Shown here piece after piece: positions 14,681 to 64,000 of a stretch of DNA of 64,000 nucleotides. A program made the position numbers and the translations under genes. Origin of the DNA: Polytrichum commune. Its lineage: Eukaryota; Streptophyta; Polytrichopsida; Polytrichales; Polytrichaceae. Position 1 is the stretch's first letter. Each line of letters starts with the position of its first letter. The notes below the pieces were generated by a model that did not search any database, was not told the origin of the DNA, and was given only the letters and a program-made list of their open reading frames with translations. The stretch covers positions 66,690,033 to 66,754,032 of the forward strand of contig OX485804.1 in the NCBI GenBank assembly GCA_950295325.1. Direction: 5' to 3'.

Positions 14681-14762
14681 TCACCACTTCATTGGGTACC
14701 TAAATTTACTTCAAACACCGAGCCACTCTAGTCAACAAAGAATAGGCATGATTCAAGCATGC

Positions 14763-36039: not shown

Positions 36040-36924
36040 AAGCGGAAGGTAGTTACAAGACTTGGAGGCGACTAGGAGACTTGGAGGCAACTAGGAAAAA
36101 TTGGAGACACAAACTTGAGAGAAGGGAAGGAGCACCCGAAACTCGGTAAGTATTCTCTCTTTGGGTTACATTTGAATTCATTGTATTTCAACTATTCCTT
36201 GGAATGAATTGCATTGTCAATTACGCAAATTCATTTTTGAGGAAGGAGCGCGGCGAAGGTACGTCCTCAACCTTTTTGGGAATTTGCTAAGAACTTAAAA
36301 GGAACCTATAACCGAGTAGCTCATTAAAACATTAGAGGGTAAATTCACCTTAGGACATTGAACTTTGACACTCACCTCGGGGTGAGTCTCAAAGTTTTGG
36401 GAGTTGTCATTTCATGCTCTAGATTAAATTAATATTTCACAAAGTTTATGGTGTTGTTACATTGAGTCACGATTGAGGGGAGTGCTAACTCACAGGGGGA
36501 TGCGATTGCTCAAGGTATGTTTATTTCTTCAAAGTGAACTCATTAACTAATTAAGGAATGCCTTTTGTACTCGTGATTGTTGTTATCCGTTGTAGAGGGT
36601 AATTCCCGAATTGTGGATGGTGTGAGAAGTTGAAGGGTGAAGCCTCGACTTTTAACATAATCTACTCGGAAGGTCACCCCCTCACAATCGGTATTGTGGT
36701 GAGTGTTAATTTGCGGGAAGGTGCGGAGGTGATGCTCCGACTTAACCAAAAAATTAACATGAACATGCCTATCCCCTATTGGGATTCTTTCACCTAAGTG
36801 GGCTTGCAGGTTCTTTTCCTCACCTCCTAAAAAAATTATAACCACACCAAGACAAGTGAAAATATTAAGAGGGGAATTGCTAGGATTATGTGTGGTCAAG
36901 TGAAGGTCGATCGATTCTTATGGA

Positions 36925-43380: not shown

Positions 43381-44354
43381 TGTCGCAACCCTTGCTAGGT
43401 CCCTTAAAAATCTTGCCAATTTTCCTTTCTAGCAAAGGTTACGAGCGCTAACCCTTCGCATACCGCCATGCTAATGGTTAGCTCCTCTTACCCCGGACCA
43501 CATAGTTCATAGAAGGAGAACCAACCCTCCTACTTTGCTTTCGGGACTCACCCCTTAATCGGTAACCCATTTCTTTGATGTGGACTTCCATCCATGGAAG
43601 TCCAATCCTATGTTGATCATCGTGTTGCCGGAGCAACACTACAACAACCCGAACCATACTAGGCAACTATGGCCTCACAATGGGCCAAAGCCCATGGAGG
43701 CCGTGCCGTTCGGCCTCGGGTGGGTGAGGCCACACCACCTCACCCATATAAGCCTCTAGGACTCTATGCGGGGCCCCTACCCCACCGTCAACCAACCTCT
43801 TGTCTCTCTACCAAGAGTTGGGGCCAAGTGGACATTTTCCCTTAGCCGCTGGAGCCTAGAAGCCCCCACAGCTTCAGACCATCATAACTTCCTTGTATGA
43901 TGTCTGATCATAACAACCAACCACTCCATCCTCATCTACGCTTCACGTAGATGCCGATGGACTCCTCACTTGCCCCATTCGGGCAAGTGGTGAGGAAGTT
44001 ATGCCTGTTTGAACCTTGGCAGTCCCGGGAATCACTCCCAGGCACTGCTGTACCAGGGCGCTGTCCCGGGACAGCGCCCCACTCAAATGGCCATAACTCC
44101 TAGCTCACACCTCCGATTGAGGTGTTCTTGAGCATTCTAGAATCACCACGCCATGAGCTACGCATAGCTCATGGCCTTACCCTTGTGCCTCCTAGTGTCC
44201 GTGGGTGGGAGGCGTTCCCAACGCCCGGGGCCCTCACCCACACTAGGATCACTTGGGCCCTCTCACCAATGGCGCCACAAGTCCCGGGTGTCACTCCGGG
44301 GTCCCCCTTGTGCCCATGGTGTTTTGGGCACTCCTCATGGAGAGGTGCGCGACA
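43381..44354. mobile_element. solo LTR (family S), nested in the 3' LTR
   Basis: 974 bp from TGTCGCAACCC to GTGCGCGACA, with the perfect terminal repeat TGTCGC / GCGACA. It is flanked by GTTAT on both sides (43376-43380 and 44355-44359). It contains ACCCATATAAGCCTCTAGG (about 43742), a likely TATA box of the LTR promoter. A second copy with its own target duplication is at 58316-59288. The internal coding part is gone, as expected after recombination between the two LTRs of a complete element. Confidence 0.93.
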
Positions 44355-47992: not shown

Positions 47993-48303
47993 CGCCCTTC
48001 GAGTGCAGGTGCAGTCCGTGTTCTGTCTTATGTTTCATATTCTTTTGTAACGGGTACAACGTTCTGTGAAGTGATCTTTTGTTAGCCGCTACAGCGTGAA
48101 CATTCTTGCATCCTACAGAGTTACAGACTGTGTATTCTGTTGCTTCAACAGGAAGGTGAGTTAATGTACTGCGGCAAGGCACTATCCTAGTTGTAGCAAT
48201 GTATCACTTCGCAGTGGAAGACGGATTGATTCTATGATATTAGGACAGGACCACGATCTGGTCCGCTACGTGGACAATAGGTTTAGCGTGTTTGTAGATT
48301 ACC

Positions 48304-49605
48304 ATGGCCTCTACTTCTGCGCAGCCTGAAGAAAATTATAACCAGTACTTGATTCAGGAGAGAGATGAAAAGGCGAAGAATCTGATACGAGGGCGTTGTG
48401 TAGGAAGAGGCACATCCGGGATAGTATATGAGGTGACAGAACAATGGTTAGGCAAGAGATGCGTCATCAAAGACTTCTCTGCCGTGAAGAGCGTGGGTTT
48501 TAAAGATGAAGTATTTCCTTTGGTCTTTCTTGAGCACGAGAACATTGTGCAGTACTATTGGTTTACTTCTGACACGAGAAGATGTTCCATTGTGTTAGAG
48601 TATGTGGATGATGATCTTCGCAGCGTTGTACAAAAGAAGAGGGAGGCGCAATGGAAGAAGTCCCTGGTTGCTTCCGGTACAAGTTCTAACAAGTCACGCT
48701 TGGTTTACATGGAAGAGTTCTTAAAGCCACCGAATATTGTTACCATCCCAGATGGTGTGGAAGGTCCTTCTTCAGAACCATTGGTGATTGATTCTACTCC
48801 TTTTGCACTGCTTGACGCTATTGAGATTATGTTTCAAATTGCAACTGGCATGGAGTACTTGCATGGGAAAGGTGTTCCGCACGGGGATCTTACACCAAAC
48901 AACGTGTGTGGTAGTTTTACACCGGACCAGAGGATGCAGGTAAAGGTAACTGATTACGGCCTCCTTGGAATCAAGAAGCGCATGAAGATGGCTTCGAAGC
49001 ATACTCGACACTCTAAAGTGCTTTTATGGAAAGCACCCGAATTATTTGAGGAATTTCTTGGAACCTCAACTGAAGACTCCGGCGATCCCTGGACTGACTC
49101 GGATACCGAATCAGATGAAGAGAGGCGCCATCCGCCAAATGCTTCTGATATTGATAATTTCAAGGAAAAGAAGGCTGACGTCTACAGCTTCGCTGTTTTA
49201 TGTTCACTAATCTTGGCTGGGGAATTATCTCATCAAAATTTGAGCTTAAGTGACTTACGAAAGCAGATTTCATCTGATAATCTAAGACCGAAATTACCTC
49301 CAACATGTCCAGAGCTGCTCAGAACTCTGATTGAGGAATGTTGGGATAGGGACTTCACAGCTAGGCCTGACTTCTTCGATATATGTGAAAGATTACGTTC
49401 TATCCGAACCGCCCAGGAAAGGACCACGCCAGGTAAAGTCCGTGGACCGTCATCTCGCAAATTGCTCCTTGCTAAGTTACCTATAATGATGTGGTGCAGT
49501 TCCAATTTCATATTTGTTTCAGTGAAATTTTGGTGGAATGTGACTATGATTGGCCAGTGTATTGAGAAGCCACATGCTATTCTCCTCAAAGTGTTCCATG
49601 ATTAA
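48304..49605 (+). CDS. protein kinase, HGDLTP type
   Basis: 433 residues from ATG 48304 as one open frame. The kinase domain covers about 30-380: glycine loop VGRGTSGIVYE, catalytic Lys in RCVIKDF, catalytic loop VPHGDLTPNNV, DYG in place of DFG (VKVTDYGLLG), WKAPELF and KADVYSFAVLC. An acidic Ser/Asp-rich insert (EDSGDPWTDSDTESDEE) sits between the APE motif and the F helix, and an extra loop of about 45 residues lies in the N lobe. The HRD arginine is replaced by Gly, as in the kinase at 30572-32242; the two share general layout but little sequence outside motifs. A good donor (CCAG|GTAAAG) at about 49431 suggests that the residues from about 377 on, which look unlike kinase, may be intron and that the true C terminus is downstream. 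Confidence 0.8.
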   Translation: MASTSAQPEENYNQYLIQERDEKAKNLIRGRCVGRGTSGIVYEVTEQWLGKRCVIKDFSAVKSVGFKDEVFPLVFLEHENIVQYYWFTSDTRRCSIVLEYVDDDLRSVVQKKREAQWKKSLVASGTSSNKSRLVYMEEFLKPPNIVTIPDGVEGPSSEPLVIDSTPFALLDAIEIMFQIATGMEYLHGKGVPHGDLTPNNVCGSFTPDQRMQVKVTDYGLLGIKKRMKMASKHTRHSKVLLWKAPELFEEFLGTSTEDSGDPWTDSDTESDEERRHPPNASDIDNFKEKKADVYSFAVLCSLILAGELSHQNLSLSDLRKQISSDNLRPKLPPTCPELLRTLIEECWDRDFTARPDFFDICERLRSIRTAQERTTPGKVRGPSSRKLLLAKLPIMMWCSSNFIFVSVKFWWNVTMIGQCIEKPHAILLKVFHD

Positions 49606-50625
49606 ATGTGCCTATTCCTCAAGTAAAGGTTTTTTGGGGCTCATTCTATATATACCTATATATATGTCACAGTATTCATACCTAGTGTATGAATATGCCA
49701 ACATGTTGTTTTTCTCTCCAAACATTGGTGCCAATAACAAATTTTACTTGCCATGGACTTCAATTGGGCTTCCAATCACCAGTTCAAGATGTGGGCATCG
49801 ATCAACCTTATGGAGCAACATCAATTTTTTCGAGTTATCATGAGAGGTGAACCATATTATTTCCCTCTCATATCGTGTGTTTAGTGCTCTTGAGTTTAGA
49901 ATTTGTTATTAACCTTAAAAGGACTATATCCATAAGGCTATCAAGTTCACAAATTTTGTCTCAAATTCAAAGAGTGAATTATAAAATTTAGGGAGTTGGT
50001 CTTAGGGCATTAAATAGAAGCATGTGATGGAAATTTGTTATTTTTTACCTATCAACACCATGTCACCATTGACATGTGTCCAAAGCAAGTTTAAGTAATA
50101 AATTAACTTCACAATTGATTCCGAATGTGTAAACATATGGAGTTCCAGAAGGCAAATTTTCACCTTGAAATAATAATATGATAATCAAGAGGAAAACACA
50201 AGTCGAAAACTAAATTCGAGTTTCGGACACCCCTAGACTAATCCACCATGATTGTGTTTGCACGGCCTAATCTTGATTTTCAGAACGCTCTCAAATACTA
50301 TAATTATAAGAATAAAAACACTATATTCGGTAATTGGAGACTTTTTGTTGATTTTGAGACTATTTAAGGACGTGGCTTTCACATTTGTAGGAAGGAAAAC
50401 ACTAAAAATATGCTATGTTCCCAATTTTGGAAACAAATAAGAGACTCAAATGCATGGAACCACACATACAAATAAGAAAATGGGATATATGAAAACATTT
50501 GCATATGGAAAATCAATATCATATTTATTGAATAGGGGTTGAAGTACAAAATACAAGTGGAATATCCAATATTAGGCAAAAGTCCTAGAAACATAATTCC
50601 ACAACTACATGTATGTTAATATAGC
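49606..50625. other. AT-rich intergenic DNA, no gene recognised
   Basis: It may hold a 3' exon or untranslated region of the kinase upstream. Nothing else is supported. Confidence 0.4.
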
Positions 50626-50880
50626 CTATACGTTCGGATCATGATTACGACTCACTACTTTTGCTTTTGCAATACTATTATTAGCATTTATGGCCGTTTC
50701 ACGTTCTTTTGCTTTCATGGCCTCCATGGCTCTAAAGATCTCGGGTCCGCGGCTAAAACCTTGTGTATTTGTCGACCCCGAATATGTGCCATTTGCCCAT
50801 ATTTGCCGACCCCCTACCGAATAAGTGGAATACGAATGCGATTGGGAAAACGAACGTCTTACACTCTTCCGTAGGGCCAA
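50626..50880 (-). CDS. unrecognised small frame, possible 3' exon
   Basis: 84 codons, MALRKSVRRSFSQSHSYSTY then SVGGRQIW and EAMKAKERETAI. Basic and Ser/Tyr rich; no domain recognised. It follows the phosphatase-like gene on the same strand and may be a further exon of that locus or a separate small gene. Confidence 0.25.
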   Translation of the reverse strand: MALRKSVRRSFSQSHSYSTYSVGGRQIWANGTYSGSTNTQGFSRGPEIFRAMEAMKAKERETAINANNSIAKAKVVSRNHDPNV

Positions 50881-51075
50881 ACAACGATCAGACTCGCAAG
50901 AAGCAGTCTTCAGTGTTCACCTATCCAATGACGAAGTCGAGGATGAACGGCCCACATTCATGTGTATTGGGGTCTGAAACAATGACCATAAATACATATA
51001 ATGACGTGGGTTAGTATAAGTTACGGATGGAAGTCCGAAAAACCCAAGAATATGAAATGCACTAATCCACGGAAA

Positions 51076-51516
51076 TCATGAAGAAAAAACTTGAGAATAC
51101 CAATAAGTGGGCACCTTGGCCTGCGGGGCGGTGGTTTGAGCTTCTGCGACATCGAGGGGGGCCACAAGCACAACAGGGACGCTCGTAAACGCTGGGACAT
51201 CAATTTGGGGTTCATCCATACAAAGGCGTCTGGTCGACCGCGGGTTTCGAACGTGCTTCTCATTGCGGAGGGGAGATGGAGATGGAGATGGAGATGGAGC
51301 GTAATTGAGTTTTGCAACCTTTGGAGGAGGGCTATCGACAACTCCGTCTTCAAACCCCGAGTCTTTGGAGTAATCAACAGCAGAGGCGGCATCGACGGCT
51401 GAAAATTGAAATAGTGAAGGCATTGAAATGTCGGTCACACCGATGGAAGGGGAGCTGGGGCCCGGTTTAGATGCACACATGCCATGGACGAGACTTTGGG
51501 ATGCTTGGTGAGGCAA
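51076..51516 (-). CDS. unrecognised low-complexity frame, possible exon
   Basis: 146 codons. A plausible acceptor (CTTAG) at about 51520 precedes LPHQASQSLVHG. The sequence is Pro/Ser/Ala rich with PSPSPSPSPLRNEK encoded by a GGAGAT repeat (about 51282-51300). The end WYSQVF overlaps a possible donor (TTG|GTATTC). It could be the disordered tail of the phosphatase-like gene immediately upstream on the same strand. Confidence 0.3.
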   Translation of the reverse strand: MPHQASQSLVHGMCASKPGPSSPSIGVTDISMPSLFQFSAVDAASAVDYSKDSGFEDGVVDSPPPKVAKLNYAPSPSPSPSPLRNEKHVRNPRSTRRLCMDEPQIDVPAFTSVPVVLVAPLDVAEAQTTAPQAKVPTYWYSQVFSS

Positions 51517-52092
51517 CTAAGACACAAAAATACATTTACAAAATACAGGGAGAAATGTTAGATATAAACATGGAGAGTCCAAGTACAAACCCAAAAAGCA
51601 GTTCTCATATTAATTTATTGAGTTTGGCATAGCCGTACAACCTCCTAAATTCCTCATCTCTTGGGCCTAGAGGCCTATTGCCAATGGGGTTGGAGAGGAC
51701 AAAATCCGGGACACTTCCGGGGTCATAGGCAAGCCTCCTAATGTAGGGTCCTAGTTCATTCTCTAGAAAGTTGTCATTTCTATCACTCTCCCAAGGATCC
51801 GGGAATATGCAACTGCCCGGGGGATTGAGAATACTCTTTGCCGGGCTGTCGTCAATGAGGAGCGTGTTCTCCGGGGTGGGCCAACAACCGTGGGGCACCC
51901 CCTCCAACATAGGGACGCCCACCCAAAGGTTCTTCCTCAGTACCTTTAGGAATTGAGGCCCTCGGCCTCCTCCGACTTTGGGTACAATGTTGCCATTACG
52001 GTCATAAAGGTCATCGCAGTGTTCTTGACCGAGAAGCAAGCATGGCATTGCGAGTTCTCGGAAAAGGAAACCGACGATGGCCTTCGTGTTGT

Positions 52093-53195
52093 CAGGGTTG
52101 TCTATCGCGACGTCATGACGGTGTCGTGCCGTCATGTCGTGTCGTGTCGTGACGGAGGGCTCCGTCACGACACAATAGGGTCCACGTAGGGTCAACATAG
52201 GGGGAACGGACTAGGGTGGGTAAAATACTTACCTTCTTGCCAAGGTGGCGTCCTATGTGGCAGAAAACGCCGACGTGGTCGTGGATATGCCTAGCGCCAG
52301 GTAAATCATTTTGCCATTTTGTTTACCATTTTGTTAAAATCAAAGTAGTAAAAAACGACTAAGGAGGGTGTGGGGCGGACGGGGGACGAGGGTGGGGCGG
52401 ACGGGGGTGGGGGGGGAACGGAGCGGACGGAGTCGGGGTCGGGAACGGGGGCGGGAACGGAGCGGACGGGGTTGGGAACGGGGGCGGACGGGGGGGAACG
52501 GGAGCGGACGGGGTCGGGAACGGGGGCGGACCGGGGGGGGGGGGGGAACGGAGCGGACGGGGTCGGGAACAAAGCGGACGGGGTCGGGAACGGGGGCGGA
52601 CGGAGGGGGGGGGAATTTTTTTTTTTTAAAATGGGGCGGACGGGGAAGGGGGGGGGGGAAAAAAAAAAAAAAACTGGGGCGGACGGGGGAGCGGACGGGG
52701 GGGAACGGGGCGTACGGGGTTGGGAACGGGGGCGGACGGGGTTGGGAACGGGGGCGGACGGGGTTGGGAACGGGGGCGGACGGGGGGGAACGGGAGCGGA
52801 CGGAGGGGGGGGAAATTTTTTTTAAAAAAAATGGGGCGGACGGGGAAGGGGGGAAAAAAAATAAAAAATAAAAAATGGGGCGGACGGGGGGGAACGGGGC
52901 GTACGGGGTTGGGAACGGAGCGGACGGGGTCGGGAACAGGGGCGGACGGGGGGGCGGACGGGCTCTAGTAAATTTTTCCCCACTTTACCTTTACTTTGCT
53001 GACATGTCATCACACGTGGACATTGTAAATCCTACGTGTCCGAATTGGGTTAATGTAATTACACAAAAAAATCGGTAAAATTCAAGTCCGTCAGGATAAA
53101 GACAGCATCCGGCATAATGTCGTGACGGATACGTGTCGTGACGGCACGACATTATGCCGGGAGTACCCTCCGTCACGACACAATAGACAACCCTG
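52093..53195. mobile_element. 1103-bp non-autonomous hAT element inside the phosphatase-like exon
   Basis: The ends are perfect 13-bp inverted repeats, CAGGGTTGTCTAT and ATAGACAACCCTG. The flanks are identical 8-bp copies CGTGTTGT (52085-52092 and 53196-53203). Near both ends CGTGACGG / CCGTCACGAC words recur in both directions (about 52125-52175 and 53120-53180), as subterminal repeats do. The centre is a G-rich tandem array. No transposase coding was seen. Confidence 0.95.
52368..52970 (+). repeat. G-rich tandem array (units of GGGGCGGACGGGG-T-GGGAAC)
   Basis: About 600 bp made of variants of GGGGCGGACGGGGTTGGGAA, with runs of 8-12 G, interrupted by poly-T/poly-A patches near 52618 and 52818. 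Several runs of four or more G lie within short distance, so quadruplex folding is plausible. It sits wholly inside the hAT element. Confidence 0.9.
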
Positions 53196-53773
53196 CGTGT
53201 TGTCCATGAGCATAGAGCTCCAGATGATGACATGGGCCAAGCCAAGGACATCACGAAGGAAGCACCTCAACCCCGGCCGGGCCCGTACAACCTTCTTGTT
53301 AATGAGAGTATCGAACTGTCCGCCGTAATCCATGTCTTGTGGACTACGGAAGGGACCCTTCGACGCACTATTGGAGATATGCATGGAATGACAAAGCACC
53401 CCATTGAGGTCAAATATTATGAACGGTTTCCTCATGGGCCGGCTTGGTCTTTCAGCGGGGTTGCGACATATCTCCGACGGACCCTGTGATGGAAAATACT
53501 ATCTAGGTGAATGGTACTACCCATGAAAACCAATTGACAAGCATGCACAAACTCAACAAACTAATATAAGGCAAAAAGAATACGAATACGCAGTTCAAAA
53601 AATTTGTATTAATGTGATTGGTTTAATACATTTCGCGAATAATTTACATTGTCAAAAAAGGTCTCCCCTAAAACTAATTGAATCTATGCTGGCAAAATTG
53701 CATCCACCCGCCGGGCGAAGTCGAGCATCGAACTCGACAATATGCACACGCCACGAAGTTGGCAGACAAGGAA

Positions 53774-53795
53774 GTTTCGGACGCGCGTCCGTAAC
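53774..53795. repeat. palindrome copy 1 (intron of the large minus gene)
   Basis: Core CGGACGCGCGTCCG (53778-53791), flanked GTTT and TAAC. It lies in the 340-bp putative intron 53823-53484. Confidence 0.9.
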
Positions 53796-53823
53796 GTGGG
53801 AGGCAAGCTCAAAGGTGGATTAC

Positions 53824-55293
53824 CTCTTCAGCGGAGAGGCCCTCGCCAGCAGTGCCTCCCTCACCAGGCCCCATCGTGGGCACAGGTTCCGGACGCGCGT
53901 CCGCAAAATTGTGCAAGCTATCCTCCACCACCAAGGCGCCTCCAGCCGCTTGCGACCCCTGGGTATCGACATGAGGTTGATCTTCATCTGTGGTGTCTTG
54001 GCTGCCCCGCATATGTTCATCTTCTTGGCTGCCCCGCATATGTTCATCCTCCTGGCTGCCCCGCATATCTTCATCTTCTTGGCTGCCAATGGTTGTGATG
54101 TCTTCAATGGCGCCTTTCTCGTGAGCACCTGCCGTATAACGTGCAGGTCTCTCCTCCTCTCGTACGGTATGAGAGGAGGGCTCTGGGGTGGCGGCAACCT
54201 GGGGAGAGGGCGGGACATACAAGGCGGGGGCTGGATAGGTATGCTCTGGTATGTACACCGTATGGCTACTAGACGGAGGCCGCATGAGAGTGGGAGGCAT
54301 CGACATGCCGGCTTCGGGAACTGCATACATTACTGGGGGTCTTGCTTGCAAGCTCTGCATGAGGCTCATAAATTGTTGGCTCTGGGCCAAGAATTGTTGA
54401 TTTTGAGCCATGAGATCGGCGTGCCTTCGAGCAGACTCCAACCTAGCCTCCTCCATCTCAGCTTGGATGGCGGCCATCTTTTTGGCGTGCTCCTCGTTAG
54501 CTTCTCGAAGCCGTTGGTCAAGCTCTTCCTTCATTCTCTTCTCCAGTTTCTCGTCCAATTTGGCCACAGACATTGGCTCTTTCTTCACCTTGCCAGGTTC
54601 AGAAGGCAACGCAGAGAGGGCATTGTACATCCTAACCTCATCCTCGTCTTCATCAGAGAGTTCCAAGACGGCGCCTTCAGGGTACTCGTTGTAAGGAGTC
54701 TTCTTCCTCTGTCGACGACTCTCACGGTATGAGGCGATATCCGGCCTCAAAATCAACTCCAGCACATCTCTACCCTCCATAGGTGGTAGCTCTGCCTGTT
54801 CAGATCCCCCTCCAGATGAGGCTGTGCATCCGGCTTCTGTCGCAACGTCCACATCCTTCTCTGCCATAAGCCCAGCAGCACGCAATGGACCCGCAGTGGA
54901 AGGAAACCCAACTCGAGAAGTGGGAGTCCCAAAGGGAGAGGAAATAGGGGTAGGATGGACCCTTATTGGAGTGAAGTCTTCATGCGCCCCCTCTGTATCC
55001 ATGCGGTCTTCGCCCAAGACAAATTGATGAGGATGAACAGGATCACGAACAAGGCCGGGCACGTGATCTTGTCTGGTTGGCTGCTCTCTTGGGGAGACGG
55101 GCTCTTGGTCTCCGTCACTGTCCCACTCCGTCGCAGGAGTTCCCTCTTCTCTTGAGGCAAGAGGCACCACATGATGGGGGGTAAGGACATCGATGATGTC
55201 TTCGATATCCATTTTCGAGGCAAGAACCCTATGAGTATTCGCCTCATCCATGTCGCGAGCCTCCACAAACGAATTTACCTGCAACCCAAGCAT
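53824..55293 (-). CDS. coiled-coil and acidic-repeat exon of the large minus gene
   Basis: The exon opens after GGTGCAG (acceptor) with MLGLQVNSFVEARDMDE and runs open for about 490 codons to a donor (GAAGAG|GTAATC). A first part is Pro/Ser/Glu rich; a strongly charged stretch (about 54600-54380: KLEKRMKEELDQRLREANEE, then KKMAAIQAEMEEARLESARR and Gln-rich repeats) is a probable coiled coil; then Pro/Tyr-rich; then three to four 9-residue repeats of MRGSQEDEH type coded by a 27-bp tandem repeat (53997-54080). Palindrome copy 2 (53890-53903) is read through in frame as FADARPEP. Both edges are phase 0 and match neighbouring exons. No enzyme domain is visible. It may serve as an assembly or tether region. 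Confidence 0.65.
53890..53903. repeat. palindrome copy 2 (within coding sequence)
   Basis: CGGACGCGCGTCCG, flanked by AGGTTC and CAAAAT, in frame inside the coiled-coil exon near its 3' end. Confidence 0.9.
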
Positions 55294-55370
55294 CTGCACC
55301 AAAACAAGGAAACTATAGTCATTCCATTGTTGCGAGCAAGTATGAGGACAAATATAATCATGAAGCACTG

Positions 55371-55490
55371 CAATTTACGGACGCGCGGCCGTGAATTTGC
55401 ACTGCATATGTGGTGGACAATGTTACGGACGCGCGGCCGTAAATTTGCACTGCATATGTGGTGGACAATGATACGGACGCGCGGCCGAAA
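55371..55490. repeat. palindrome copies 3-5 in 48-bp tandem units (intron)
   Basis: Cores at 55378-55391, 55426-55439 and 55474-55487 read CGGACGCGCGGCCG, the same one-base variant in all three. They sit in 48-bp tandem units (2.3 copies), each also carrying TTTGCACTGCATATGTGG, inside the intron between 55538 and 55293. Confidence 0.9.
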
Positions 55491-55537
55491 ATTTCAATTC
55501 AGATGGAGCATGGAAAGAGGTGCATACAAGTACTTAC

Positions 55538-56443
55538 CAATGCCGCGTAAACAAATTTGGTGCCTCCGAAGACGTTGTAAACTGTTTCACTCATCACAGT
55601 CACAGCCTTCAAGACTCCAATATAAAAATCCATTCGGAGCTCGTACGCCAGGTAGATTGCATACATAGTCTCCGCGACAAGCTCCTTGGGGTGTGGTGGT
55701 GGCAACGAGTATACTTTCTTGAACACGTTCTGCGCTTTGATAGGCATCCGCCCACTTGGTGAAGACTTGTGTGTCAAGAAATAAAGTGCCAAAGCCCCGA
55801 CCTGCTTCGTCCCTCTTGCCTCTTCAATAACACTGATCCTTTCCGTCTTCGCGGGGATGTATGTGCTGTGGTAAAGATCGTATTGGAGGTTCATCGTCGA
55901 TGTGTAAAGCTGGACGACCGATGCGGACCTCTCTTGATCTAAGATCCAGAGCCACACATTTGGCTCGAAGAGGGCAGGCGACCGATAGCTCTTGAAGGCC
56001 TTGAAGAAGTTGTCATAGAAAGCGGTCCCGCTAGCGTTTTGTCTCCAAGATCCGGGAAATGCACGGAAATCAAATAGTGCGAACGGACAACCCCGGGGGT
56101 CATCTCTCACAGAGGCTCTTGAAGCATGTGTGTCCCATGTGCCAAACTTCAAGGCCGTTGTAACAGTGCAGAATCTTGCGACCCCTCCGAATTTTGTTTT
56201 CTTTTTTCTATCAAGGAAATGGACGTACAACGCCGTCTCTCTTTCGTCGATAGACCCTTTCTTCTCGTTCCTCCTAGATCTTTGGGCTAGGAAGGGAGAT
56301 GCGTCTCTTATCAATGATCGCATGGAGACCCCATTGATGTGATACTCCTCCTTGAGCGTCCTCCAGTTTTTCCACATTATCTCCCCATCTGTATTAGTGA
56401 GGTTGTGGGAGGGCAGCAGCTTGCTTATCTCCCTTATAGCCAT
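55538..56443 (-). CDS. middle exon of the large minus gene, unrecognised
   Basis: About 302 codons starting MAIREISKLLPSHNL and ending at a strong donor (GCATTG|GTAAGT, phase 0) after FVYAAL. A segment WKNWRTLKEEYHINGV is weakly SANT-like; later parts (FGTWDTHASRASVRDDPRG, WLWILDQERSASVVQLYTST, PHPKELVAETMYAIYLAYEL) suggest a globular alpha/beta or alpha-helical domain I do not recognise. Upstream in the same frame only a TAG (about 56446) and a few codons (KKT) separate it from the preceding segment, so the two were probably once one exon. It is probably part of a dead copy, but the sequence itself shows no other damage. Confidence 0.55.
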
Positions 56444-56445
56444 GG

Positions 56446-56980
56446 TCTTCTTCTACCTGTATTCGCACCATTCCTTAATGTGGTACGTAGAAGGCTTCAT
56501 GTGCTTCGGTCGCTTCAGGAAGATTTTGGGGTAGGGCAGTGTCCTCCTCGGAGTCTCCAATAGGATGTGTTGTGCCGCTCTGTACAGTTCGGAGTCGAGC
56601 AATCCTTGGAGGGGACGAAAGAACTCTCTCGGGATAGGTGGCACCTTAACCTTCGAGTCGTTCTTGTACGTGTTTTCTGTATCCGGATTGATAAGGTCTC
56701 CGTTGTTGTGGGCATCGAATAGGCGCAACCAAATTGCCCATGTCTCTTCTGTGGCGGTGATGAGCTTAAGTTCTCCCTTCAGCTCCTGCACGTCTTCATG
56801 CCGCTTGTCTTCAAGTCAATGCTGGAGAATTTTGTCAAGATGGCATTGCTGAATGTCTGCAATGCCATGTATTACAAGAAATCAGCAGAGTTTAAATCGA
56901 AGGAATTAAAGAATTCAATTTGGAAGGAGATGGGAAGAAGTTTACGGACGCGCGTCTGTAAAATTATACTGAAACATACC
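56446..56980 (-). pseudogene. segment of the large minus gene with intron, apparent 1-nt deletion and stop
   Basis: Donor CAG|GTATGT at 56979 ends the upstream exon; an acceptor GGCATTGCAG at about 56857 opens a short stretch (TFSNAILTKFSSIDLKTSG). The following long frame (QELKGELKLITATEETWAIW to HIKEWCEYR) is offset by one base, and a missing G near 56794 would explain it. The frame then meets TAG at 56446 before continuing as the next segment. It includes IFLKRPKHMKPSTYHIKEW. The family is unknown. One deletion and one stop in an otherwise open sequence look like recent decay. Confidence 0.55.
56941..56962. repeat. palindrome copy 6 (intron)
   Basis: TTTACGGACGCGCGTCTGTAAA, one change from perfect, lies 17 bp inside the intron that starts with GTATGT at 56979. 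Confidence 0.9.
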
Positions 56981-57714
56981 TGCCATTTGGGATTTTTGAT
57001 GACTGCATTCTCCCTCTCTTTTGGGGGACAATCGTGCTCCACCCACAAGGTCCTTCCAGCCACGATGTTGGCAACCCATGAAGCCTCGAACTGCCTCACT
57101 TTATTCCCTTGGTTCATGAAGGCAGATATTGCGATGAGCTGGTTCGAGTATTTGGAATGGACGACGAATGCCTTCCAGTATCGGATTGTCTCCTTCAAAG
57201 GGCTCTTCCACTCATCGTCCTCGAGGAGAGCTTTTGCAGCCATCACACTATGTTGGCCGTCGACTATGTAGAACTCTCCATCTTTGAGAATTGGCCAGTT
57301 TTGTGCTGTGACTTCAACCACAACATCCTTTGGTGTCACACATATTGTCTGCCTATCAAATTTGGGGTTGTTCATAATGTTATTCATTTGCCACCACACC
57401 CCAGTCTCTTCTTTGGCACGAGTATTCATATTCTCCGTGCCCTTGTGGCATTTGTAGACATCCACATCAAACGTGAAATATCTTCCAAGCGGCCAGCAGC
57501 CCTTTGTCTTCTCGTCGAACTCTTGGAAAATCTTTGTGGATAGTTCGGCGTCCGGGCGTTGTCCTTTCTTAAGAAGTGGGGCGACTGTAAGAGTGGAACT
57601 CACATCTGGACCCTCTGTTAGCCCAGACGACTCCATCTGTGAGTGGGAGCGTTTACTGGCCTGCTTGCTCCCTCTTGATGCTCCACTCTGTGAGGATCTG
57701 GAGGCTTCTGGCAC
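56981..57714 (-). CDS. ParB/DGQHR-like exon of the large minus gene
   Basis: About 244 codons. After a Ser/Lys-rich leader (SRSSQSGASRGSKQASKRSH, a possible nuclear signal) comes a globular part: CWPLGRYFTFDVDVYKC, TICVTPKDVVVEV, then ILKDGEFYIVDGQHSVMAA at about residues 145-165, followed by RYWKAFVVHSKYSNQLIAI and SAFMNQGNKVRQFEASWVAN. The strand-then-(D/E)GQH-then-helix pattern followed by a beta strand is that of the ParB/sulfiredoxin-like fold and of bacterial DGQHR proteins, which bind or cut nucleic acid or regulate DNA modification. The His-Ser in place of His-Arg is unusual. The frame is offset from the upstream exon near 57720. The call is a fold-level resemblance seen by eye, not a proven assignment. 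Confidence 0.45.
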
Positions 57715-57715
57715 G

Positions 57716-58267
57716 TGTTTAGGAACACGTTTAGGTCATTCAGGAATTGGTTTTTTCTTCTCCTTTCATTTCTTGGCTTCGAGTAATGCCCCATTACTCT
57801 TGTCACGTTGTTCAAAAGACGTCTAAGCCGTTTACCCGTCCAGGGCGCATTGCAGGCATAGTCTTGGAATTCATTCTGTAGATTGAAGCAAGACGCATCT
57901 GGGCTGGCATTCTCACATTTATTTTTGTTGAACGGATGGTACAACTCGTGCAAAATGAATGTGATCCTATCATTTTTCTTTTCAAGGTCAATGACAACAT
58001 AATCACCTTGGGCTACCGCACACTCTACTGTCCAATTTTTGACCTTGATCCACTTCTCGGTTTCATCTATATCTGCTTTTATTTGATAGGAAAATCTAAG
58101 GACAAATATCTCATTTTCATCTTTTTCTACGATAACTGTCCAGTTATCTACAATGTCTTCGCGTGGCTTGTAATGGTCGTTGTGGCTTATGTCTTTGATG
58201 GCTTTTGGAAGCGGAGGATGGACAAGCTCTGCGAATATATCAATAGCTGGTCTTTTTGTAGATTCCA
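57716..58267 (-). CDS. first coding exon of the large minus gene
   Basis: The ATG directly follows the acceptor CACATTTGCAG: MESTKRPAIDIFAELVHPPL, then DNWTVIVEKDENEIFVLRFS and WTVECAVAQGDYVVIDLEKK and FILHELYHPFNKN, a beta-rich N-terminal domain I do not recognise. It ends in a basic run (RRRKNQFLNDLNVF). Around 57712-57735 an imperfect duplication (CTAAACGTGTTC / CTAAACACGTGCC) shifts the frame by one into the next segment, so the join to the ParB-like part is probably a frameshift and not a splice. The exon has a 5' intron that contains the solo LTR and most palindromes. Confidence 0.6.
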
Positions 58268-58315
58268 TCTGCAAATGTGAAATATATAAATCAATATTAT
58301 GGTCAAGGGATGCAG

Positions 58316-59288
58316 TGTCGCAACCCTTGCTAACCCCCTTAGCAATCTTGCCAATTTTCAATTCTAGCAAAGGTTACGAGCGCTAACCATTCGCATTCCG
58401 CCATGCTAATGGTTAGCTCCTCCTACCCCGGACCTTATAGTTCATAGGAGGGAACCAACCCTCCTACTTTGCTTTAGGGACTCACCCCTTAATCGGTAAC
58501 CCATTCCTAGATGTGGACTTCCATCCATGGAAGTCCAATCCCATGTTGATCATCGCGTTGCCGGAGCAACACTACAACAACCCGAACCATACTAGGCAAC
58601 TATGGCCTCACATTGGGCCAATGCCCATGGAGGCCGTGCCGTTCGGCCTCGGGTGGGTGAGGCCACACCACCTCACCCATATAAGCCTCTAGGACTTCAC
58701 GCGGGGCCCCTACCCCACCGTCAACCAACCTCTTGTCTCTCTACCAAGAGTTGGGGCCAAGTGGACATTTTCCTTTAGCTGCTGGGCCTAGAACCCCCCC
58801 AGCAGCTTCAGACCATCATAACTTCCTTGTATGATGTCTGATCATAACAACCAACCACTCTATCCTCATCTACGCTTCACGTAGATGCCGATGGACTCCT
58901 CACTTGCTCCATTTGAGCAAGTCTTGAGGAAGTTATGCCTGTTTGAACCTTGGCAGTCCCGGGAATCACTCCCAGGCACTGCTGTACCAGGGCGCTGTCC
59001 TGGGACAGCGCCCCACTCAAATGGCCATAACTCCTAGCTCACACCTCCGATTGAGGTGTTCTTGAGCTTTCTAGAATCACCACGCCATGAGCTACGCATA
59101 ACTCATGGCCTTACCCTTGTGCCTCCTAATCTTCGTGGGTGGGAGGCGTTCCCAACGCCCGGGGCCCTCACCCACACTAGGATCACTTGGGCCCTCTCAC
59201 CAACGGCGCCACAAGTCCCGGGTGTCACTCCGGGGTCCCCCTTGTGCCCATGGTGTTTCGGGCACTCCTCATGGACAGGTGCGCGACA
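58316..59288. mobile_element. second solo LTR of family S
   Basis: 973 bp, TGTCGCAACCC to GTGCGCGACA, about 95% identical by eye to 43381-44354. The flanks are TGCAG on both sides (58311-58315 and 59289-59293). It lies in the intron just upstream of the first coding exon of the large minus gene, so it need not break coding but could affect splicing or promoter use. Confidence 0.94.
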
Positions 59289-59301
59289 TGCAGAGCCTAT
59301 C

Positions 59302-60100
59302 TTACGAACGCGCGGTCGTAAATTTATGCGTTCATTCTCATATAGAATGTTTCTACACATGTATTATGTTACAGTATATGTCCGTAAACTTGAGATATCT
59401 TATTAAAAGGAATCTCATACATGATATATGTGCAGAGTTTACGGACGCGCGTCCGTAAACTCATGCGGATATATCATCCAAAAGTTTTTAGTTCTATATT
59501 TTGGAATATAATAGGTTTTTATTCTTAGGTAGCCCTTATTTACGGACGTAGGTCCGTAAATTTTTGGAAAATATGTTTGTTTTTGTTGTGTAGACTTGTA
59601 TATTTTGTAGAATTTATTTTGAAAACCCATGGCATGTATTATGTTATAAGATTCTCATGTTTTCTATGCTTAGTTTACGGACGTGCGTCCGTAAACTCTG
59701 CAAATGTGTCATGTATTAGATTTCAAGTATATCTCAAGATTTTTGTATATCTCAAGTTTATTAATAGTTATTTTGAAATATCTCTAGAATTTGCGATGCT
59801 TATTCCCAGGGTTCCATGAAGTTTACGGACGCGCGTCCGTAAACTCGCGTCCGTAAACTTCAGGCATTACTGTGATTTTAATTACTTTGCACAATTATTG
59901 TTAATGTGTTCACACAATTTGTGATGCTTATTCCCAGGGATCCCTGAAGTTTACGGACGCGCGTCCGTAAACTTCAGACCATTTTTTAATTACTGTGAAT
60001 TTAATTACTTCGCACAATTATTGTTAATGTTTTCACACAATTTGCGATGCTTATTCCCAGGGTTCCCTGAAGTTTACGGACGCGCGTCCGTAAACTTCAG
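59302..60100. repeat. palindrome array, copies 7-13
   Basis: Copies at 59302-59322 (variant CGAACGCGCGGTCG), 59437-59460 (perfect 24-bp palindrome), 59538-59561 (centre changed), 59673-59696 (centre changed), 59821-59844 (perfect, followed by an extra half-site), 59944-59977 and 60067-60100 (both perfect over 34 bp, starting CTGAAG). The half-site is GTTTACGGACGC. The last copies sit in tandem units of about 123 bp that also share GATGCTTATTCCCAGGG and TTAATTACT. Spacing is irregular (about 100-150 bp). The array lies in the putative first intron of the large minus gene. Confidence 0.93.
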
Positions 60101-61400
60101 ACCATTTTTTAATTACTGTATATTTAAGTACTTTGTACAATTATTGTTAATGTGTTGTTGGATATTGTTCCGAAATTTTCGGAAGAGCTTTTTCTGTGCA
60201 TTACATTCATGTGCAATGTTCATCTTATCTTGGAATGCAACATGGATTTGCACTCCATATTAGAATGTATGAGGTGTTGCATTGCAATAGCAGATTCTAC
60301 ACTCCAAACTAAGAAGACTGTATCATTTCAGAATTGCAATGTTGTAGGAAACACTTACCTTTGTACAATGTTTGCTCCTAAACCACAACTGCAGCTAGGA
60401 GAGACTGCAAATTAACAATAAAATTGAAGTTAGAAACCTCTGCAAATGCAATGTGCACATTCAAGAATCAACTAACCTTCGTTTTGCTCCTAAAATGCAT
60501 CAAACCCACAAAAAAACCCTACTACAAAGATTGAACTGGATTCAACATTGACATCAGATTTAAGTGAACAAAGCAAAACTTCTTAGAACTTGGACAAAGT
60601 GAATTGAAGTGAAGTGAAGACAATTACAATATGAAGGGAAGAGCAATCTGAAACAAGTAAAACTACTCCAACCCTAAAACCCTTCCAACTGAAACTACTC
60701 CAATTATGTCCTAATGAGACTGCAAGCAAAAAACTACTCAATTTCTTCACATACATTATCTTAGAAACCCTAAACCAGCTACAATCTTACAATCTTACAA
60801 TCCCCCTTTTGTGCATCAAAACATACACTGAAATCACCTAATAAGCACCTGGAACAGCACATCTTGGAGTGAAGGAAAGAAAAAAGCACCTGTCTAGAGC
60901 TCCTGGCGCTCTTATGCAACTAAGACACAAAGCAACAAATCAAGAGCAAGAAGGAGAAAGAGGAGAAACAACAAGTAAGAGGAGAAGGATGAGAAACAAC
61001 AAGTAGAAGGAGGAGGAGAATGAGGAGAAACAGCAAGTAGAAGGAGATTGAGGAGGAGAATGAAGGAGAAGGAGATTGAGGATGAGAATGAAGGAGAAGG
61101 AGAATGAGGAGGTGGAGAAGGAGGAGAAGGAGGACCAGCAAGGGCGAGCAGCAAGGGCGAGGAGCAAAGGCGAGGAGCAAGGGCGAGCAACAAAGGAATG
61201 CAGGAGGAGGAAAGGAGCGAAAGGAGGAAAGGGTGAAAGGGTGAAAGCAAAAAGGGCAAGGGCGAATGCACGAAACCCTAAACCCAAAACGTTGCATCCA
61301 CTCCCTCCCAAACGCCCCTACCTAGACGTCCCATCACCCCGCGCCCAAAGGCCACGCGTTCCCCTTACGTGGCATATGTCTATTGGTCTATATTAGAGTG
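60101..61400 (-). promoter_or_regulatory. putative 5' leader and promoter of the large minus gene
   Basis: A strong donor (AAAG|GTAAGTG on the minus strand, 60358) marks the end of a non-coding first exon whose 3' part lies at about 60360-60900. A long CT-rich leader on the minus strand (purine-rich on plus, 60950-61260) and a telo-box AAACCCTAAACCC (about 61275, plus strand) are typical of plant 5' leaders. ACCAATAG (minus, about 61385) may be a CCAAT box. The transcription start would be near 61300. Confidence 0.4.
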
Positions 61401-62940
61401 GTAGAGTCCACCCTCGATAAATGTCACACTTCCACATGTTAACTCATAATTGTATTTGTTAACAAATTCGTACTCCTCTCATATTGCTAACTAGAATGTT
61501 AACTTTGTTAAATGTTAAGAATAATTTATTCCCCTCTTTGTTAATTTGCCACTTATAAATGTTAACCTACGAACTACATCCAATATTGTGAGATGACATC
61601 CATTACATTGAGTCACAACCTTCCAAAGTGGCAAAAGCCACCAAATTTGTGATCAAATTATTAATATGGGTTATATTGTGATTGATACACATATTTTATG
61701 TTTGATAATTTTGCAAAACTCTCCCTTCATAATTGTAATGAATGAAATTTGTTAAGCATTCAAAAAGCTCCCTTTATAATTGTTACAATGTCAACTCACA
61801 ATAAATGTTAGGAACATTGTATTCTAGAGCCTAACATTTATAGAGGATGGATTGTATGTTGTTTGAGTCCAAGAACGTATACCAAAAACAATTGCTGACC
61901 AAAAATAAAGGAATCTCAATGCTCAATGTATAATAACCATCTAGGCCCAATAGTAAACATAATTCTGAAGTATAGGTTGAGGTTGAGTAACTCAAGTGTA
62001 AGATTTTCTTTGTGGACTTGTTGTAATATGAAGGTAAGCGGGCTTTAAATTACTAGTACACTAACTATTATAAGTAGTATTGCTTAATATTTAGAATTAT
62101 GGATTGCTATATTAACTATTCATTGTATATTAATATGTCATTGGCATCAATTAAATAACATCAATAATAAAAAGATAAAGCCTTTTGTAACTCCAAACAA
62201 TGAGTGAAACTAAATTATACCATTTCTAGTGTAGCAAGTATGGAGGGGACTTTATATTTTAAGAATAGTAATAATATTGAATATAAAGGATGTCTTCTTG
62301 ATTAAGTTAAGTATAATTTTTTTTTCACAAAGGTGGGATTCAAATGCAATTGGGACAATTGCATTACCCATTGGCCACAAATTCTCATGAAACGTTGCCC
62401 CTACACCCAACACTATATTCGTTAAATTGAGACTTTCTCTAGTCTCAAATTAATATATGGATCAAAGAACTTGAAGAGGCCCGAAACTATATTGTCAACA
62501 ATCTCAATTATATTATATGTTCTAATATCCCAAATCTATGATGTGCGGACATAAGCACATATGGTAGAGCACTCGACACCAACTTCATCAACAAAAACAC
62601 ATTGGGTAGAGCACTTCAAACAAGTTTCACCCAAAAATATGTATAAAATGATTTCTATTATTAGCATGTTCAATAGAATATAGACATTGCAACATACAAA
62701 GTGCATGTAATAAATGCATGTTTCTTCATTCGAGAATATAGTCCCAAACATAATAATAAGATGAACTTCAATTGCAGCTTGAAATATAGTAAATGGATAT
62801 TCATCCAACTCCAAACAATATAGTATTCGTAAGTTCTACCCAAACTCTGCCCCAATTTTGAAGAGCACACATATGTGTAATTCATATTGCTATAATTACG
62901 TATTAAACTATAATCATGCTAACACAATCCTACCAACTTC
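61400..62940. other. AT-rich intergenic DNA
   Basis: No gene or named repeat recognised. Words such as AATGTTAAC and TGTTAACTC recur between 61430 and 61810. Confidence 0.4.
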
Positions 62941-63996
62941 TCATTCAACGTGGGTTGCTTCTTCTGCAATCCGAGCAAGGTTGTCTTTTGCAAAAGTTAT
63001 GTACTTTTGAGGGATGGACACTGATCCACTATGGTGTTTCCGTGGTTTCCATGCTATGAATATGGAATCTGTATCTACCCAAGATGGACCGTGCTCAGAA
63101 TCCACCTTCCACCGAAAGTTAGGGTTTGTATCCCAGCCTGTATAATGCCGAATCACATCTTCATTCCTTGCTGTCGGTCGATAGTACTCCACTTGTATTT
63201 GTCGAAAATGAGGGCTGGAAGTTACAAAATTGGGATTGGACAAAGCTCTTGCCACCCACACTGGCTTCGCATATGTCTCGTCTCCAGGACGCAAAATGAG
63301 CATATAACCTTCATGACAATCCACTGCAATGCGGAAAGATGGTGGGGGACGACTACTAGCAGGCCCCACGTAATGGTCGTCCACATCAAACTCCTCTCGA
63401 ACCTCTCCATTTCCCAAAAGACTAGGCTCTGAAGCTTGTACATCGACTCGTGTTTGTGGCCAAAATCCATGCCTCAAAGTATGAGGGCTATCTTGGTGGA
63501 GGTCTGCCAAGGCGGCACGAACACGTGTCCAATAATGTATCCAACTCCCATAACGATGCCAACATGATCCGCCAACATCCGCTATTTTCAAACTCTCCCA
63601 ATATTGTATGAAGCCTGATATACCTTTCAAAATATCCTCCAAATTCGTCATGGCTATTGGCTTACAAGGCCTAGGCTCCCCATCCGGTAACATGGTCTTT
63701 CCATCCGCATCCACGCGCCACACAAGAAGACCCTCCGGCGGGCTCCAGTCTTGTGACGTGCACAACAACTTGTATTGCATGGCCGGGACACCATCGTCAC
63801 GCATATAGAAGCGGAATTGTTGTGCCTTCGTATGCCCGATCAATCGGTGAGCTCCACTTCGAATATAAGGTTCTATAAATGCCTTGAAGTCTGGCACCTC
63901 CTCAATCATATGGGGGATGACGGGAACGTTCTCCAAATCCATGCACGACTTCATCAATAATGGAATTGTAGGAAAATCCTCCTCCCGCAACTTCAT
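62941..63996 (-). CDS. unrecognised gene, 5' part probably beyond the window
   Basis: 351 codons open to within 4 bases of the window edge, ending EEATHVE at a TGA. Motifs include HRLIGHTKAQQFRFYMRDD, DWSPPEGLLVW, SCWHRYGSWIHYWTRVR, then KPVWVARALSNPNF, QIQVEYYRPTA and SIFIAWKPRK. Trp- and Tyr-rich spacing in the C-terminal third resembles small beta-barrel reader-like or adaptor modules often found in element-encoded plant proteins, but I cannot name the family. It sits on the same strand as the large gene and shares the intact, GC-richer look. The first Met at 63996 may be internal. Confidence 0.6.
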   Translation of the reverse strand: MKLREEDFPTIPLLMKSCMDLENVPVIPHMIEEVPDFKAFIEPYIRSGAHRLIGHTKAQQFRFYMRDDGVPAMQYKLLCTSQDWSPPEGLLVWRVDADGKTMLPDGEPRPCKPIAMTNLEDILKGISGFIQYWESLKIADVGGSCWHRYGSWIHYWTRVRAALADLHQDSPHTLRHGFWPQTRVDVQASEPSLLGNGEVREEFDVDDHYVGPASSRPPPSFRIAVDCHEGYMLILRPGDETYAKPVWVARALSNPNFVTSSPHFRQIQVEYYRPTARNEDVIRHYTGWDTNPNFRWKVDSEHGPSWVDTDSIFIAWKPRKHHSGSVSIPQKYITFAKDNLARIAEEATHVE

Positions 63997-64000
63997 GCTC

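What the first reader, a model, noticed from the sequence alone, without database searches (positions are those of the whole stretch)
53774..60100. Swarm of at least 13 CpG-rich palindromes confined to one gene
A palindrome with half-site GTTTACGGACGC occurs at least 13 times between 53.77 and 60.10 kb and I found none elsewhere in the window. Perfect copies reach 24 bp and two reach 34 bp. Placement is not random: seven are in the first intron, four in inner introns (one plus a group of three), one in another intron near the 3' side, and one is read in frame as protein. Some sit in tandem units but others stand alone, so simple tandem spread is not enough. Candidate explanations are binding sites for the gene's own protein, a tiny mobile palindrome of the bacterial REP or RPE kind, or subterminal sites of a large transposon.
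Basis: seen in the sequence. Interest (0 to 1): 0.82.

Follow-up and report, generated by a model that had tools for sequence, protein, structure and literature searches.

The report
Family-specific palindrome arrays in giant transposons
The palindromes are built-in sites of a large, multi-copy jumping gene; related families carry their own version of the palindrome in the same places, which points to a self-encoded protein that recognises, and perhaps un-silences, its own kind.

Summary
The 13 palindromes are real but not confined to one gene. CGGACGCGCGTCCG occurs 1262 times in the genome, in clusters. The clusters examined are mainly copies of a ~17.3-kb DNA transposon: 28-bp TIR, 4-bp target duplication, DUF7869 transposase, a three-exon 'DGQH' protein and a phosphatase gene. 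The window copy is degraded and split by a related element.

Three families carry three 22-bp palindromes of one design: TTTACGGACG-NN-CGTCCGTAAA (1147 exact), TTTACGAACG-NN-CGTTCGTAAA (2909), GTTTGGGTCG-NN-CGACCCAAAC (9231). They lie in matching places: 5' of the transposase gene, 5' of the DGQH gene, in its introns and near its end. Motif class follows DGQH-protein clade (302 of 306 assigned sites, 28 sequences). In one intron, half-sites are 97% identical between copies; the rest is 48-52%. The DGQH protein diverges faster than the transposase.

Best reading (inferred): binding sites for an element-encoded protein, most likely DGQH, working like Arabidopsis VANC anti-silencing but in an unrelated transposon with an unrelated protein. 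A MULE-type element and a long-TIR element carry two of the motifs. REP-like mobility and RNA hairpins are disfavoured. Binding and anti-silencing are untested.

The parts
50317..64000 (-). Copy of the ~17-kb DNA transposon (family A); continues past the window to extended coordinate 86268 (C2:66776300), interrupted from 62409 by a nested family-D element
   Evidence: TIRs at both ends, 4-bp TSD TAAA; blastn pieces to the full copy E1 at 69-94%
50317..50344 (+). Terminal inverted repeat AACACTATATTCGGTAATTGGAGACTTT (partner at extended 86241-86268)
51608..53429 (-). NIF/FCP1-like phosphatase gene of the element, split by a stretch with G-rich repeats (about 52094-53183)
   Evidence: Pfam NIF 3.5e-05 on one fragment, 0.00066 (below cut-off) on the other; 7.3e-14 in the E1 copy; tblastn
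53774..53795 (.). Palindrome after the stop of the long exon and 5' of the phosphatase gene
53886..53907 (.). Palindrome inside coding sequence, read ..ADARPEP..
53812..55293 (-). DGQH gene, third coding exon
   Evidence: tblastn 72% to the E1 exon; ORF list
55374..55395 (.). Palindrome in inner intron (first of three, 48-bp units)
55422..55443 (.). Palindrome in inner intron (second of three)
55470..55491 (.). Palindrome in inner intron (third of three)
55538..56856 (-). DGQH gene, second coding exon (carries an in-frame stop in this copy)
   Evidence: tblastn 84% to the E1 exon; two adjacent ORFs in one frame
56941..56962 (.). Palindrome in intron 2
   Evidence: site in the same intron of E1 and E2
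56977..58268 (-). DGQH gene, first coding exon (..FYIVDGQHSVMAAK..), frameshifted in this copy
   Evidence: tblastn in two overlapping frames; genome-wide relatives
58316..59288 (.). Solitary LTR-like insertion in intron 1, 95% identical to 43381-44354 beside the Gypsy-type ORF
59301..59322 (.). Degenerate palindrome in intron 1 (closer to the C motif)
59438..59459 (.). Palindrome in intron 1
59539..59560 (.). Degenerate palindrome in intron 1
59674..59695 (.). Palindrome in intron 1 (central TG)
59822..59843 (.). Palindrome in intron 1; an extra half-site follows at 59848-59857
59950..59971 (.). Palindrome in intron 1, 34 bp perfect, ~123-bp tandem unit
60073..60094 (.). Palindrome in intron 1, 34 bp perfect, ~123-bp tandem unit
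62409..64000 (+). Nested family-D element (62409 to extended 79194, 16,786 bp, TSD ACCC); its 32 exact GTTTGGGTCG-NN-CGACCCAAAC sites all lie beyond the window end
62944..64000 (-). Transposase of the nested D element, continuing to extended 65843
   Evidence: tblastn 64-66% to the E1 transposase, which is the copy that matches DUF7869

Best explanation
SHOWN: the palindromes are cis-elements of a group of ~17-kb TIR DNA transposons. Related families carry their own 22-bp inverted repeat (10-bp half-site, 2-bp spacer) at matching internal places: upstream of the transposase gene, upstream of and in the introns of the DGQH gene, and near that gene's end before the phosphatase gene. In the one intron tested (intron 2 of family C) the half-sites are more conserved than the adjacent exon, while repeat units around the sites differ between families. 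INFERRED: a dimer of a protein encoded by the element binds them. The likeliest binder is the DGQH protein, with its fast-diverging N-terminal ~180 residues setting specificity. Binding across the element's own promoters and introns counteracts host silencing, so that copies with the matching site are reactivated. This is the logic of VANC in Arabidopsis VANDALs. Joint change of site and protein splits families; other transposons that acquire the site may ride along.
For: TIR and 4-bp TSD in 4 of 4 elements of this type with both ends read. Three motifs, three protein clades: best-assigned sites in AB clade 78 own, 4 C-like, 0 D-like; C clade 121 own, 0, 0; D clade 103 own, 0, 0; 6 ties dropped. 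1147, 2909 and 9231 exact sites genome-wide, reversed-pattern controls 0. Listed clusters with a DGQH exon within 12 kb have one of the same class in 6 of 6 (A), 4 of 5 (C; the fifth is a single site near a D exon) and 2 of 2 (D). Non-redundant sites: high information in half-sites, 0.3-0.4 bits at the centre in C and D, mostly under 0.3 bits outside. Intron 2, 8 copies: half-sites 97.1%, other intron 48.4% (52.4% without gaps), adjacent exon 80.5% (83.1%). A-C: transposase 71-86%, DGQH exons 30-54%. First-exon N-part versus DGQH part: A-C 35 vs 52%, A-D 23 vs 41%. VANC parallels: PMC5735166 Results and Discussion.
Against: No binding, methylation or expression data. The three motif classes stand for only about two motif changes, so the link to DGQH rather than to another element gene rests on relative divergence and association. 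The phosphatase gene also diverges (A-C 64%, A-D 41%). DGQH has no curated domain match, so no proven DNA-binding fold; two structure models were useless. Four C-like sites occur in A-family copies. In the listings, 26 of 86 C sites, 39 of 100 D sites and 3 of 50 A sites had no listed DGQH exon within 12 kb. A MULE-type element with D motifs has no alignable DGQH protein, so the binder could be something shared, such as a host protein.
Confidence: 0.5

Rival explanations
1. Sites for the element's own protein, but acting as ordinary operators or transposition enhancers (autoregulation, or a TnpA-like role in bringing the ends together), not anti-silencing.
For: In the A and D elements, arrays lie 5' of both divergent genes, as operators would; family specificity is expected here too.
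Against: In E1 the outermost sites are more than 2.2 kb inside the ends, unlike the subterminal TnpA sites that I recall. Many sites are in introns or past the DGQH stop codon. Nothing here tests transcription.
Confidence: 0.27
2. A host-encoded DNA-binding protein recognises the palindromes, either exploited by the transposons or part of host defence.
For: The D motif occurs in at least two transposon types: the DUF7869 type, and a MULE-type element with no alignable DGQH protein.
Against: Three motifs, each tied to one protein clade, would need three host proteins or one very tolerant one. Site conservation within elements is most easily explained if the element benefits.
Confidence: 0.15
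3. The palindromes act as RNA hairpins in transcripts, for example in splicing or processing.
For: Many are in introns; in the C clade one starts about 4 bp inside the 5' splice site of intron 2.
Against: Of 1060 base-pair positions in 106 non-redundant sites, 84 changed on one side only, 3 on both sides with pairing kept, 4 on both without pairing: sequence, not pairing, is kept. Sites also lie upstream of the transposase start codon.
Confidence: 0.03
4. A tiny REP/REPIN-like mobile palindrome that inserts by itself.
For: Same palindrome in unrelated flanks.
Against: Orthologous, not scattered, positions in 8 of 8 alignable C-clade copies; many sites sit in tandem units of 48-135 bp; listed sites are clustered.
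Confidence: 0.02

Closest known systems
VANC/VANDAL anti-silencing system of Arabidopsis (VANC21, VANC6; PMC5735166, Results and Discussion read)
   Same: Accessory protein diverging faster than the transposase; short family-specific motifs, often in tandem arrays, upstream of the transposase gene and in introns of the accessory gene; motif differs between related families; a motif also found in an unrelated transposon (AT9TSD1 there).
   Different: Here a DUF7869 transposase, 28-bp TIR and 4-bp TSD; a DGQH protein with no significant Pfam family (VANC has DUF1985 and DUF287); 22-bp CpG-rich inverted repeats instead of the 8-9-base motifs of VANC. No evidence yet of protein binding or methylation loss.
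TnpA of En/Spm (CACTA) and its subterminal sites (recalled; search gave one off-topic listing)
   Same: Several short sites for a self-encoded protein (recalled).
   Different: Sites here are internal and palindromic; ends and TSD length are not CACTA-like.
ParB-parS and DGQHR-domain proteins
   Same: Palindromic sites plus a protein whose DGQH stretch weakly resembles ParB-like (PHROG 1033, E 0.011, 2 of 9 members) and DGQHR (TIGR03187, E 0.09, 1 of 9) profiles.
   Different: None of these is significant; a PHROG of unknown function scored better (21482, E 0.0029, 1 of 9). parS similarity was not tested.
Fungal DNA transposons that encode a TET/JBP dioxygenase (PMC12730594; search listing and start of summary only)
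   Same: Transposons that appear to carry a gene acting on the host's DNA methylation.
   Different: A demethylating enzyme, not a site-specific protein with matching arrays, as far as the listing tells.
REP/REPIN elements of bacteria
   Same: Short repeated palindromes.
   Different: Positions are orthologous within an element; no sign of independent mobility.

Membership tests
VANC/VANDAL system | VANDAL (MULE) transposase VANA in the same element | tested here: not met
   The two E1 transposase pieces match DUF7869 (9.3e-38, second piece) and no other Pfam family
VANC/VANDAL system | VANC protein with DUF1985/DUF287 domains | tested here: not met
   Pfam scans of the DGQH exons give no significant family and neither domain
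VANC/VANDAL system | Motif arrays in non-coding parts that differ between related families | tested here: met
VANC/VANDAL system | Accessory protein evolves faster than transposase | tested here: met
   A-C: 30-54% vs 71-86%; A-D: exons 34, 37 and 25% vs transposase 64-66%
VANC/VANDAL system | Protein binds the motif and causes loss of DNA methylation | not testable with these tools
   No binding or bisulfite data at hand
DUF7869-bearing TIR DNA transposon | DUF7869 domain above Pfam cut-off | tested here: met
   130.2 bits vs cut-off 26 in E1
DUF7869-bearing TIR DNA transposon | TIRs and TSD of constant length | tested here: met
   28-bp TIR; 4-bp TSD CACT, ATGG, TAAA, ACCC in 4 of 4 elements with both ends read
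Sola-type transposons (4-bp TSD, recalled) | Sola transposase homology | not tested
   No Sola reference sequence at hand; one search gave only listings
CACTA/En-Spm | CACTA termini and 3-bp TSD (recalled) | tested here: not met
   Termini read AACACTAT.., TSD 4 bp
ParB/DGQHR | Significant profile match | tested here: not met
   PHROG ParB-like E 0.011, TIGR03187 E 0.09, DUF6551 E 0.16; no PDB sequence relative
REP/REPIN | Independent insertion of the palindrome | tested here: not met
   Orthologous positions in 8 of 8 alignable copies of one intron

The most novel reading that the evidence does not exclude
A transposon-encoded recognition system, unrelated to VANC, in which a eukaryotic ParB/DGQHR-like clamp protein loads at CpG-rich palindromes and spreads to keep its own element free of silencing. 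The palindromic 'password' changes between families and has been copied by other transposons (a MULE-type and a long-TIR element), which thereby hitch-hike.
Probability: 0.15. Interest if true: 0.92.

Novelty: new variant of a known kind. Interest (0 to 1): 0.75.

Why it matters
In my searches VANC was the only documented case of sequence-specific anti-silencing by a transposon that came up. A second, apparently independent case with defined 22-bp sites, thousands of natural copies and three versions of the protein-site pair would show that such passwords evolve repeatedly. It would let one ask directly how specificity switches, and could give new tools for local epigenome change. It may also explain how one genome can hold several large transposon families side by side.

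Tried and rejected
Rejected or disfavoured: chance; uniform scatter; REP-like mobile palindromes and RNA stems; subterminal sites. Structure prediction of two window fragments without an alignment gave mean pLDDT 31 and 36 and was not used; a first attempt had wrong coordinates (error). PDB, Pfam, NCBIfam and PHROG scans of the DGQH protein gave nothing significant. The first core pattern for the DGQH exon found 0 places because I had fixed the wrong serine codon; corrected, 622 places. Of 7 further loci of the MULE-type family's second gene (two at 60-73% identity, five near 44%), 0 had the three motifs with up to 4 mismatches. The script that looked for a target duplication within 6 bp of the MULE-type arms found none; AGTTGGCATG lies 7 bp outside both arms. 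The organism was not identified.

Weak or unseen: Sola membership (recalled only); TnpA literature (one off-topic listing). DUF7869 is in none of the held papers.
Full report
OBSERVATION. The window holds 11 copies of CGGACGCGCGTCCG with up to 2 mismatches, against 0.01 expected, plus two degenerate ones. That gives the 13 reported. The core is not special to this gene: the genome (408 Mb, 64 contigs) has 1262 exact copies.

THE ELEMENT. Two other clusters on contig C1 align with each other at 97.6% over about 17.3 kb with sharp ends. E1 is C1:27947644-27964956 and E2 is C1:36951047-36968396. Both have TIRs of about 28 bp (AACACTATATTCGTTAATTGGAGACTTT; one mismatch between the arms in E1) and 4-bp target duplications (CACT, ATGG). 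The window copy starts at 50317 and ends at extended coordinate 86268, TSD TAAA. A related element sits inside it from 62409 to 79194, TSD ACCC. The TIR with up to 3 mismatches occurs 1316 times forward and 1315 reverse, control 0.

GENES. In E1: a transposase on the minus strand (el 661-3829; DUF7869, 9.3e-38); a gene on the plus strand with three long coding exons (el 10522-14928), the first holding ..IVDGQHS.. ('DGQH protein'); and a NIF/FCP1-like phosphatase gene (el 15245-16024; 7.3e-14). Exons are my reading of open frames and splice-like borders; there are no transcripts. The window copy is broken: frameshift in exon 1, in-frame stop in exon 2, a split phosphatase gene, a solitary LTR-like insertion in intron 1.

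THREE FAMILIES, THREE MOTIFS. A DGQH-exon search scored 150 of 915 candidates; the matches fall mainly into identity classes of about 86-100%, 77-82% and 54%. A search with the nested element's protein scored 150 of 952, all at 90% or more. A palindrome finder that used no prior motif, run on one or two elements per class, showed that A and B elements carry TTTACGGACG-NN-CGTCCGTAAA, C elements TTTACGAACG-NN-CGTTCGTAAA, and the nested D element GTTTGGGTCG-NN-CGACCCAAAC. Exact genome counts are 1147, 2909 and 9231, controls 0. I then fetched 20 further loci, all on C1, picked by eye for differing core letters among the 100 listed of 622 places. Over 28 sequences (5 AB, 12 C, 11 D; two had no site), sites best assigned to the own class were 78 of 82 in AB (4 C-like), 121 of 121 in C and 103 of 103 in D, with 6 ties dropped. 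The copies are related, so these are not independent events; they amount to about two motif changes. What is notable is that the many sites of one element, in unrelated flanks, share the same family version.

PLACEMENT. In E1 the sites lie 5' of the transposase (el about 4100-4930), 5' of the first long DGQH exon (9727-10450), in introns 2 and 3, once in coding sequence and once after the DGQH stop (14949), before the phosphatase gene. A weaker palindrome (el 2276) lies within the transposase gene region and was not counted as a site. The complete D element repeats this plan with its own motif: 12 exact sites 5' of the transposase, 11 5' of DGQH exon 1, 3 after exon 1, 3 after exon 2, 3 near the 3' end of the DGQH gene. 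Repeat units differ: 123-128 and 48 bp in the window, 95 and 135 bp in E1, 78 bp in D. Between window and E1, blastn aligned the array region only around the palindromes while the exons align at 81%.

ASSOCIATION ON C1. The motif listings show only the first places on C1. Of 50 A-type sites, 47 have an A-type DGQH exon nearest within 12 kb and 3 have none. Of 86 C-type sites, 59 have a C-type exon, 1 a D-type exon, 26 none. Of 100 D-type sites, 61 have a D-type exon, 39 none. Five of the clusters without a listed exon were fetched. The three A sites adjoin an A-type transposase piece, and the 1180-kb D cluster has a D-type exon at 83% that the pattern had missed. The other three are described below. 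Two small D clusters (438 and 463 kb, 1 and 3 sites) and a C singleton were not fetched.

SELECTION. In C-clade intron 2, 8 copies could be aligned. Both palindromes are at the same places in 8 of 8. Half-site columns are 97.1% identical between copies, other intron columns 48.4% counting gaps as differences (52.4% without gaps), the adjacent exon stretch 80.5% (83.1%). I dropped L023 (no matching intron in the alignment), L030 and L032 (decayed); L010+L011 is the same family as L013. Motif columns were chosen by the motif, which favours them. In D-clade copies the same intron holds a varying number of sites and the first site is missing from the nested D copy. Non-redundant sites (24 AB, 58 C, 24 D) have little information in the flanks, apart from 1-3 bases next to the site, and 0.3-0.4 bits in the central two bases in C and D; in AB the centre is mostly CG. 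Sites were selected with up to 3 mismatches, so high values inside are partly built in. Of 1060 base-pair positions, 84 changed on one side only, 3 on both sides with pairing kept, 4 on both without. This fits protein-bound double-stranded DNA with a 2-bp spacer, not RNA stems.

WHICH PROTEIN. Between A and C the two transposase parts are 71% and 86% identical, the DGQH exons 42, 54 and 30%, the phosphatase 64%. Between A and D: transposase 64-66%, DGQH exons 34, 37 and 25%, phosphatase 41%. Within DGQH exon 1 the first 180 alignment columns diverge most (A-C 35% against 52% in the DGQH part; A-D 23 against 41). So DGQH, and its N-terminal part, is the best candidate for the specificity factor. 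This is inference. Its resemblance to ParB/DGQHR proteins is a lead only.

OTHER CARRIERS. C1:2149501-2164500 holds a different transposon. It has ~61-bp inverted ends (87%), and AGTTGGCATG lies 7 bp outside both arms, occurring nowhere else on that strand of the 15 kb, a likely 10-bp duplication. One open frame has a SWIM-like Cys/His pattern (Pfam SWIM E 0.076, below cut-off). Calling it MULE-type rests on these and on recall. A second gene on the other strand has a DGNHR stretch; its protein has no significant similarity to DGQH. It carries 11 exact D-motif sites: two between open frames of the transposase-like gene and nine 5' of the DGNHR frame. C1:474501-479500 shares its array and part of this gene. 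That family has its own palindrome, CCCTGTGCGTTAACGCACAGGG (444 sites, control 0); by my reading, 10 of the 11 listed clusters lie within 6 kb of a DGNHR match. Seven more distant members had none of the three motifs. C1:640501-647000 is an element with 396-bp inverted ends (96%) and C-motif arrays just inside them; pieces of its middle are 66-82% like the C element's central spacer. So at least two other transposon types carry two of these motifs, as AT9TSD1 carries the VANC6 motif (PMC5735166). The direction of sharing is unknown.

MECHANISM AND STANDING. The arrangement resembles VANC in placement, tandem turnover, family specificity and relative divergence, and differs in transposase, protein and motif form. 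I read the Results and Discussion of PMC5735166, and the abstract and outline of PMC10398659. I propose convergent, self-specific anti-silencing; regulation without anti-silencing is the main rival. I saw no record of this system in the listings of searches (open-access library only).

Noticed in passing
C1:2149501-2164500 (L039, L037, L040): MULE-type element with 11 exact D-motif sites (two between frames of its transposase-like gene, nine 5' of its DGNHR gene); its family also has its own palindrome CCCTGTGCGTTAACGCACAGGG (444 sites). Possible motif sharing between transposon types.
   Followed up: partly
C1:640501-647000 (L035): Element with 396-bp, 96% identical inverted ends, C-motif arrays just inside them and a middle similar to the C element's central spacer; no element protein found with tblastn.
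   Followed up: partly
L045 and L046 (C6:18791862-18794362, C1:27969777-27972277): Diverged (~44%) DGNHR-protein members have other high-copy words 5' of the gene (12 copies of CCTCATTTCA; 10 of TCACACTTAA; three GTGTCTCGG palindromes in L046), perhaps further recognition motifs.
   Followed up: no
window 36904-43164: Uninterrupted 2086-aa Gypsy-type polyprotein frame (named by eye) followed by an LTR-like stretch (43381-44354), 95% identical to the solitary copy inside the transposon's intron 1.
   Followed up: partly
window 48298-49605: Open reading frame with a protein kinase domain (Pfam 1.2e-30) just outside the transposon end.
   Followed up: no
family C, e.g. C1:53253331, C4:1650147 and others at the end of the list: Many DGQH exons with the same score, 54% identity to the query and mostly a 511-aa open frame: looks like a recent burst of family C.
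   Followed up: no
L013 (C4:1645001-1655000), reverse strand 7416 and 7795: C-family palindromes fall in the third coding exon and appear to be read in frame (..DLRTRVRE.., ..VTNARSLIVEE..), as in family A.
   Followed up: no
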